Positions 4,569 through 4,718 of a stretch of DNA of 40,279 nt are shown in pieces. The notes under the pieces were generated by a model. It made no database searches, was not told where the DNA came from, and saw only the letters and a program-made list of their open reading frames with translations. This stretch comes from an uncultured Clostridia bacterium. GTDB lineage: Bacteria > Bacillota > Clostridia > Christensenellales > CAG-314. The position numbers were made by a program, and so were the translations under genes. How positions within the stretch are numbered: position 1 is the stretch's first letter; each line of letters opens with the position of its first letter. The stretch is taken from NCBI GenBank assembly GCA_947589685.1, contig CANQCN010000009.1, forward strand, positions 1 through 40,279, written 5' to 3'.

Positions 4569-4718
4569 GAATATTTTATTCCATGCTCATTTTTGTCGTT
4601 TATGCGTACATTATATCATATATAAATATTAAAATCAATGCCTATGGTTTGATTTATATATGATATTTAAGCTTTTGGCAATAAAACCCGTCTGTTTTGT
4701 TCATGGAATAAAATATTC
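4569..4718. repeat. 17-bp perfect inverted repeats flanking a 116-bp AT-rich segment (candidate invertible element)
   Basis: GAATATTTTATTCCATG (4569-4585) and CATGGAATAAAATATTC (4702-4718); nested 15-bp IR ATATCATATATAAAT (4613-4627)/ATTTATATATGATAT (4652-4666). Confidence 0.9.
4610..4638 (-). promoter_or_regulatory. Candidate sigma-A promoter inside the IR segment, facing away from the TIR operon
   Basis: Minus strand TTGATT-N17-TATAAT (-35 at 4638-4633, -10 at 4615-4610). Confidence 0.6.

What the first reader, a model, noticed from the sequence alone, without database searches (positions are those of the whole stretch)
4569..4718. Candidate invertible promoter (inverton) between a tyrosine recombinase and the TIR operon, currently in the OFF orientation
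Seen directly: two perfect 17-bp inverted repeats (4569-4585, 4702-4718) flank 116 bp of AT-rich DNA, with a nested 15-bp IR. Inside, on the minus strand, is TTGATT-N17-TATAAT, pointing away from the downstream operon. I could not see an equally good plus-strand promoter. The right repeat is itself palindromic (GTTCATGGAATAaaaTATTCCGTGAAC), like a tyrosine-recombinase core site with two arms and a short spacer. A tyrosine recombinase gene lies immediately upstream. Established: bacterial phase-variable promoters often have short IRs next to a tyrosine recombinase. Inference: flipping would direct the promoter into the TIR-HEPN-SPFH genes, giving a phase-variable module.
Basis: partly seen in the sequence, partly recalled or inferred. 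Interest (0 to 1): 0.85.

Follow-up and report, generated by a model that had tools for sequence, protein, structure and literature searches.

The report
Flippable promoter cassette before TIR operon
A 137-bp piece of DNA carrying a promoter sits between two recombinase sites in front of an immune-like gene cluster; relatives show the same kind of piece in both orientations, so it is an on/off switch, found here in the off position and with its own recombinase gene broken by a frameshift.

Summary
The repeats are larger than reported: two inverted 29-bp palindromic sites (4561-4589, 4698-4726), each two 12-bp arms around the same 5-bp centre (ATTTT), just downstream of a tyrosine recombinase gene. 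Relatives of that recombinase carry the same arrangement in about 55 of 97 scored loci (1 of 93 upstream controls, 0 of 291 shuffles). Centres match within a pair but differ between loci, and the two sites are 10.5-bp phased; both replicated on new loci. Most segments hold one strong promoter at one end, pointing at the next operon (ON) or back at the recombinase (OFF). In three groups of related loci the segment is inverted between collinear flanks, so inversion of the family is shown by comparison. The window copy is OFF, as in its closest relative. Correction: the recombinase here has a one-base frameshift (intact in that relative), so this copy may be locked OFF unless a paralogue acts in trans or the base is an assembly error. 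No reads or strains were available; flipping of this very copy is not shown. Switched operons include TIR-HEPN/SIR2-SPFH, restriction-modification, surface-protein and pilin genes. Promoter invertons are a known kind; this cassette family and its phased sites look like a new variant.

The parts
3607..4532 (+). Tyrosine recombinase gene (SAM-like core-binding domain + catalytic domain), broken by a one-base frameshift near 4155 into ORFs 3607-4161 (carries the box I Arg) and 4158-4532 (carries Lys, His-x-x-Arg, His, Tyr)
   Evidence: Pfam PF14659 E 1.8e-12 and PF00589 E 2.4e-19 on the two halves; aligned with G014, which has one extra G and an intact 308-aa frame
4537..4558 (.). G+C-rich hairpin between recombinase stop and left site, with T-runs on both sides; likely two-way transcription terminator that insulates the recombinase
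   Evidence: RNA fold -11.8 (sense) and -8.9 kcal/mol (antisense); in the family, 28 of 44 loci with a long enough gap have a hairpin at z < -1.5
4561..4589 (+). Left recombination site: TGTACATCGAAT-ATTTT-ATTCCATGCTCA
4575..4712 (.). Invertible segment measured between site centres (137 bp apart, 13 helical turns)
4610..4638 (-). Promoter TTGATT-N17-TATAAT with extended -10 (TG), pointing towards the recombinase, i.e. OFF for the TIR operon
4613..4666 (.). Nested 15-bp inverted repeat (4613-4627 / 4652-4666) around the -10 region; in G014 too, not general to the family
4698..4726 (-). Right recombination site, inverted copy: TGTTCACGGAAT-ATTTT-ATTCCATGAACA read on the minus strand; on the plus strand a perfect hairpin followed by TTTTTT
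4769..6973 (+). First gene of the switched operon: zinc ribbon-TPR-TIR-transmembrane protein, 734 aa; ribosome-binding site AAAGGAG at about 4753
   Evidence: Pfam TIR_2 E 5.7e-11
7019..7669 (+). HEPN-like protein, 216 aa, with RNAFAH (Rx4H) motif; in G019 the same place holds a SIR2-like gene
   Evidence: Pfam pEK499_p136 (HEPN) E 2e-4, below cut-off; SIR2_2 in L050
7662..9431 (+). SPFH/Band 7 protein with zinc ribbons, 589 aa
   Evidence: Pfam Band_7_1 E 3.3e-39
9441..10136 (+). Membrane protein, 231 aa, no Pfam match; also follows the SPFH gene in G008

Best explanation
It is a promoter inversion switch: a cassette made of a tyrosine recombinase gene, a hairpin terminator, and a pair of inverted 29-bp core sites enclosing one outward-facing sigma-70-type promoter, placed directly in front of the operon it controls. 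Recombinase protomers bind the 12-bp arms (consensus TGTTCATCTAAT). Two sites on the same face of the helix, a whole number of turns apart, pair within one short loop, and strands are exchanged across the identical 7-bp centre. That inverts the segment and turns the promoter towards the operon (ON, leader of about 85 nt here) or back towards the recombinase, where a hairpin ends the transcript (OFF). The site pair, the promoter, its direction and the orientation differences among relatives are shown; binding, synapsis and transcription are inferred. In this window the switch is OFF and its own recombinase is frameshifted, so it is probably locked OFF or slow unless a paralogue acts on it (inferred). 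The switched operon (TIR-HEPN-SPFH) looks like a defence module (inferred from domains).
For: Family: 26 recombinases at E<1e-80 in 25 genomes of the genus; 55 of 97 scored loci have an inverted pair (>=20/25) within 450 bp downstream, against 1 of 93 upstream regions and 0 of 291 shuffles. Sites: 51 of 53 fit arm12-N5-arm12; 7-bp centres identical within the pair in 32 of 33 thinned loci but only 53% identical between loci. Spacing: period 10.5 bp, R=0.77 (n=51), 0 of 2000 null draws on the thinned set; replicated on 13 new loci, R=0.79 with the same phase. Recombinase similarity tracks site similarity (Mantel r=0.43, 0 of 2000). Promoter score >=11 in 82% against 8% of shuffles; 12 ON, 39 OFF, 5 ambiguous. 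Inversion between collinear flanks in three groups: L046 against L048/L049/L056 with inner half-sites swapped and outer half-sites kept, L060 against L050/L061, and L247 against L118/L258 with the downstream gene start aligned. G014, 94% identical over the region, has an intact recombinase.
Against: No sequence reads, so no inverted molecules of this very copy; the only close relative, G014, has the same orientation. The window recombinase is frameshifted. The right site plus TTTTTT could stop part of the ON transcript. 42 of 97 scored family loci had no pair at the threshold used; some are truncated or diverged, others may have lost the switch. The interior hypothesis of a single promoter rests on consensus scoring, not on transcript data.
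Confidence: 0.92

Rival explanations
1. A dead relic: the cassette was a promoter switch, but in this lineage the frameshifted recombinase has locked it OFF for good and the sites are decaying.
For: One-base loss between the box I Arg and the rest of the active site; the long housekeeping ORFs of the window (gyrB, gyrA, argS, leuS) are intact, so errors are not frequent here.
Against: The sites, promoter and spacing are perfectly kept; the interior is about as conserved against G014 as the flanks; a one-base error in a metagenome assembly cannot be excluded; an intact paralogue (G000:C42, about 50% identical, similar arms) exists in the genome.
Confidence: 0.35
2. The inverted palindromes are only operators through which the recombinase represses itself or the operon; nothing is inverted.
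For: Each site is a palindrome next to the recombinase gene.
Against: Three groups of loci show real inversion between collinear flanks; operators need no identical, locus-specific centres.
Confidence: 0.03
3. Ends of a small mobile element (MITE or integrated element) that carried the recombinase.
For: Inverted ends and a neighbouring integrase-like gene; cassettes occur at many places in related genomes.
Against: The pair encloses only the promoter and not the recombinase; no second copy of the 15-bp core with fewer than two mismatches in the genome; spacing is helically phased; outer flanks stay in place while the inside inverts.
Confidence: 0.03
4. The TIR operon is driven by a fixed promoter at the edge of the right site (TGAACA-N17-TAAAAT, 4721-4749), and the inverted segment matters little.
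For: 9 of 12 consensus matches.
Against: It would start transcription within the ribosome-binding site; the -10 is not conserved in G014; 2.0 such matches are expected by chance in the scanned region.
Confidence: 0.06

Closest known systems
Promoter invertons of gut bacteria found with PhaseFinder (for example PMC8748976, PMC11892184)
   Same: Short inverted repeats flank a promoter, an invertase gene lies next to some of them, and surface genes are common targets.
   Different: Here each switch comes with its own recombinase in a fixed order; the pair has a locus-specific identical centre and helically phased spacing; targets include TIR, SIR2/HEPN and restriction-modification operons; hosts are uncultured Clostridia.
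fim switch of Escherichia coli (FimB/FimE, fimS); from own knowledge
   Same: Tyrosine recombinase genes beside an inverted-repeat-flanked promoter that faces the target operon or away from it.
   Different: fimS is about 314 bp with 9-bp repeats and needs IHF and Lrp; here 117-170 bp between site centres, 29-bp sites and a single adjacent recombinase.
Clostridioides difficile flg and cmr switches inverted by RecV (PMC7446863, PMC6837544)
   Same: Clostridial switches with short inverted repeats acted on by a tyrosine recombinase.
   Different: One RecV acts on distant sites; here each switch has an adjacent recombinase with matching sites.
Tn916/Tn1549-type integrases and XerA (closest solved structures)
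   Same: Same core-binding and catalytic fold; best matches 6en0 (Tn1549 Int, E 2e-26) and XerA 5hxy.
   Different: The family (about 308 aa) begins with the core-binding domain and has no arm-binding domain ahead of it, i.e. the 'simple' domain plan of PMC8138268.

Membership tests
Promoter inverton (site-specific promoter inversion switch) | Inverted repeats beyond chance flanking a short segment | tested here: met
Promoter inverton (site-specific promoter inversion switch) | Promoter inside that faces the target gene in one orientation only | tested here: met
   Sequence consensus only:
Promoter inverton (site-specific promoter inversion switch) | Both orientations occur in nature with unchanged flanks | tested here: met
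   Met for the family between related loci and genomes
Promoter inverton (site-specific promoter inversion switch) | Both orientations of this very locus within one species or population | not testable with these tools
   No reads; one genome per species; G014 has the same orientation
Tyrosine recombinase core site | Two inverted arms around a short centre that is identical in the two partner sites | tested here: met
   99% identity of the centre within pairs, 53% between loci; replicated 13 of 13
Functional tyrosine recombinase | Intact R-K-H-R-H-Y catalytic residues in one reading frame | tested here: not met
   Window copy frameshifted; G014 and the other family members used in alignment A1 are intact
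Known anti-phage defence system | Operon matches a described system | tested here: not met
   No PADLOC match for the four operon genes; TIR protein weakly like Thoeris type III ThcB4, far below cut-off
Operon acts in defence | Protects against phage | not testable with these tools
   Only domain content: TIR, HEPN or SIR2, SPFH

The most novel reading that the evidence does not exclude
A widespread, modular family of self-contained promoter switches in uncultured Clostridia: one recombinase, one pair of sites with a private centre, spacing held to whole helical turns, often with an extra half-site 14-16 bp outside the gene-side site. It is plugged in front of surface genes and of immune operons (restriction-modification, TIR-SIR2/HEPN-SPFH), making whole defence modules bet-hedged on/off traits.
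Probability: 0.6. Interest if true: 0.75.

Novelty: new variant of a known kind. Interest (0 to 1): 0.62.

Why it matters
If right, many gut Clostridia keep costly immune operons such as restriction-modification and TIR/SIR2/HEPN modules silent in most cells and switch them on at random, which would matter for phage-host dynamics and for any test of these genes in one fixed state. The helical phasing of the two sites gives a simple, testable rule for how a simple-type tyrosine recombinase joins two sites only about 140 bp apart. The private centres suggest how several similar switches can share one genome without cross-recombining. A cultured species, Pumilibacter intestinalis, carries one.

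Tried and rejected
Other copies of the site in the genome: none closer than two mismatches to the 15-bp core. PADLOC and NCBIfam for the operon: no real match. G131 and Pumilibacter (L241/L242) as an orientation test: 99.97% identical, same orientation, so uninformative. Upstream-of-recombinase repeats as an alternative site pair: at chance level. A general leader terminator at the right site: only 3 of 64 loci have the T run, so it is special to this locus and its nearest kin. The accessory half-site seen in 26 of 64 family loci is absent in the window. Literature searches for invertible promoters in front of TIR or other defence operons found nothing direct in the held library, which is not proof of absence.

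Full report
Observation. Looking wider, each repeat is the inner part of a 29-bp degenerate palindrome: left 4561-4589 TGTACATCGAAT-ATTTT-ATTCCATGCTCA, right 4698-4726, which on the minus strand reads TGTTCACGGAAT-ATTTT-ATTCCATGAACA. Their centres are 137 bp apart.

The recombinase. The gene upstream (3607-4532) is a tyrosine recombinase with a SAM-like core-binding domain and a catalytic domain, but it is split by a one-base frameshift that separates the first catalytic Arg from the rest of the active site. A species of the same genus, G014 (contig CANRHP010000003, uncultured Clostridia bacterium Lapin-032__bin130), is 94% identical over recombinase, sites and interior, has an intact 308-aa recombinase and the same orientation. 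The frameshift may be real or an assembly error; the main housekeeping ORFs of the window are whole, which favours a real one. Another intact family member lies elsewhere in the genome (G000:C42).

A family of cassettes. Homologues of this recombinase occur in 17 of 25 genomes of the genus at E<1e-20, 26 places at E<1e-80, in 62 of 297 genomes of the order at E<1e-70 and in hundreds of Clostridia records, including the cultured Pumilibacter intestinalis. In 55 of 97 scored loci an inverted pair (at least 20 of 25 matches) follows within 450 bp of the recombinase stop, against 1 of 93 upstream regions and 0 of 291 shuffles. A second set of loci gave 25 of 56 against 0 of 168.

What the sites are. 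Fitted to one model, 51 of 53 pairs are arm12-N5-arm12 with arm consensus TGTTCATCTAAT. Within a pair the central 7 bp are identical in 32 of 33 thinned loci, while between loci the centre is only 53% identical; arms are allowed to differ. This is the signature expected of tyrosine-recombinase core sites, in which strands are exchanged across a centre that must match. Site similarity follows recombinase similarity (Mantel r=0.43, 0 of 2000 permutations; a control stretch of the interior gives a weaker r=0.20).

Helical phasing. The distance between site centres takes values near 117, 127.5, 138, 148.5, 159 and 169.5 bp. The best period is 10.5 bp (R=0.77, n=51; thinned to under 70% recombinase identity n=33, R=0.75, 0 of 2000 null draws). 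Thirteen new loci, under 90% identical to the first set, gave R=0.79 with the same phase. The window pair, 137 bp, is 13 turns. I infer that the two sites must lie on the same face of the helix to pair inside a very short loop.

The promoter and its direction. Interiors carry one strong promoter (score at least 11 in 82% against 8% of shuffles), its -10 box a few tens of bp inside one of the two sites: 39 point to the recombinase, 12 to the next operon, 5 are unclear; in the new set 7, 5 and 1. The window promoter points to the recombinase and would be stopped by the hairpin at 4537-4558. Turned in silico it would start near 4684 with a leader of about 85 nt to the ATG at 4769.

Direct comparative evidence for inversion. 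In L046 the interior is the reverse complement of that in L048, L049 and L056, while recombinase-side and gene-side flanks stay aligned; outer half-sites keep their place and inner half-sites are exchanged, which puts the crossover in the centre. The same holds for L060 against L050 and L061 and for L247 (OFF) against L118 and L258 (ON), where even the start of the downstream methyltransferase-like gene aligns. These are related loci of different species or paralogues, not strains of one species.

What is switched. The next gene is on the same strand in 45 of 52 loci where a gene could be called; most of the other 7 first calls are short ORFs of doubtful reality. Targets include a Tsp45I-type restriction enzyme with its methylase, an EcoRI-type methylase with a GmrSD/HNH nuclease, Eco57I/ResIII and MmeI-type systems, a helicase with restriction-like domains, a HerA-type ATPase, BspA-type LRR proteins, an ABC transporter, a NusG-like protein, lipoproteins and pilin-like proteins. 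In the window it is TIR-HEPN-SPFH-membrane protein. In G019 an 80%-identical TIR protein is followed by a SIR2-like protein and a 95%-identical SPFH protein, behind a different switch of the family. G016 has TIR and SPFH genes but no recombinase of the family at E<1e-20. So switch and operon are separable modules. PADLOC knows none of the four window genes; a defence role is inferred from domains only.

Extra features. In 26 of 64 family loci a further half-site lies 14-16 bp outside the gene-side site, always in the same orientation and not on the recombinase side. It is absent in the window. The window's right site is followed by TTTTTT and forms a perfect hairpin (-15.7 kcal/mol) in the OFF state that becomes imperfect (-10.1) after inversion; it might block read-through in OFF and weaken in ON, but only 3 of 64 loci have the T run, so this is at most a local refinement.

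Conclusion. Flipping of this very segment remains to be shown with reads or strains. The literature tools found promoter invertons with neighbouring invertases in gut bacteria (PMC8748976, PMC11892184), so the kind is known; I found no description of this cassette family, of its helical phasing, or of its use in front of TIR/SIR2/HEPN operons, but the library held is partial.

Noticed in passing
L046, L049, L058, L165, L170, L158, L155 and others, 14-16 bp beyond the right site: Accessory third half-site in fixed orientation in 26 of 64 family loci; possibly sets a bias between the two directions.
   Followed up: partly
L050 (G019) 5520-9438; L209 (G008) 3611-6493; L208 (G016) 1-8947: The TIR/SPFH operon exists in variants: the middle gene is HEPN-like or SIR2-like, and in G008 an LRR protein end precedes HEPN-SPFH-membrane protein. 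Looks like an undescribed modular system.
   Followed up: partly
window 1-77 and 10663-10739: 77-nt repeat, 95% identical, with GTCCGACCAAGGCGGCGCTTGCGCCCC; a similar sequence occurs downstream of the recombinase in L046, so it may be a dispersed repeat of the genus.
   Followed up: no
window 23839-24179: Tandem duplicated intergenic unit of about 162 bp, 94-95% identical.
   Followed up: no
window 12334-12414 and 12632-12712: Two 81-nt copies, 91% identical, each ending in a terminator-like hairpin.
   Followed up: no
L179 6394-6951: A switch of this family precedes a NusG-like gene, reminiscent of capsule regulators in Bacteroides.
   Followed up: no
L060 5460-7915: A switch in the ON orientation precedes a gene with a weak Snf7 match and an AAA ATPase.
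   Followed up: no
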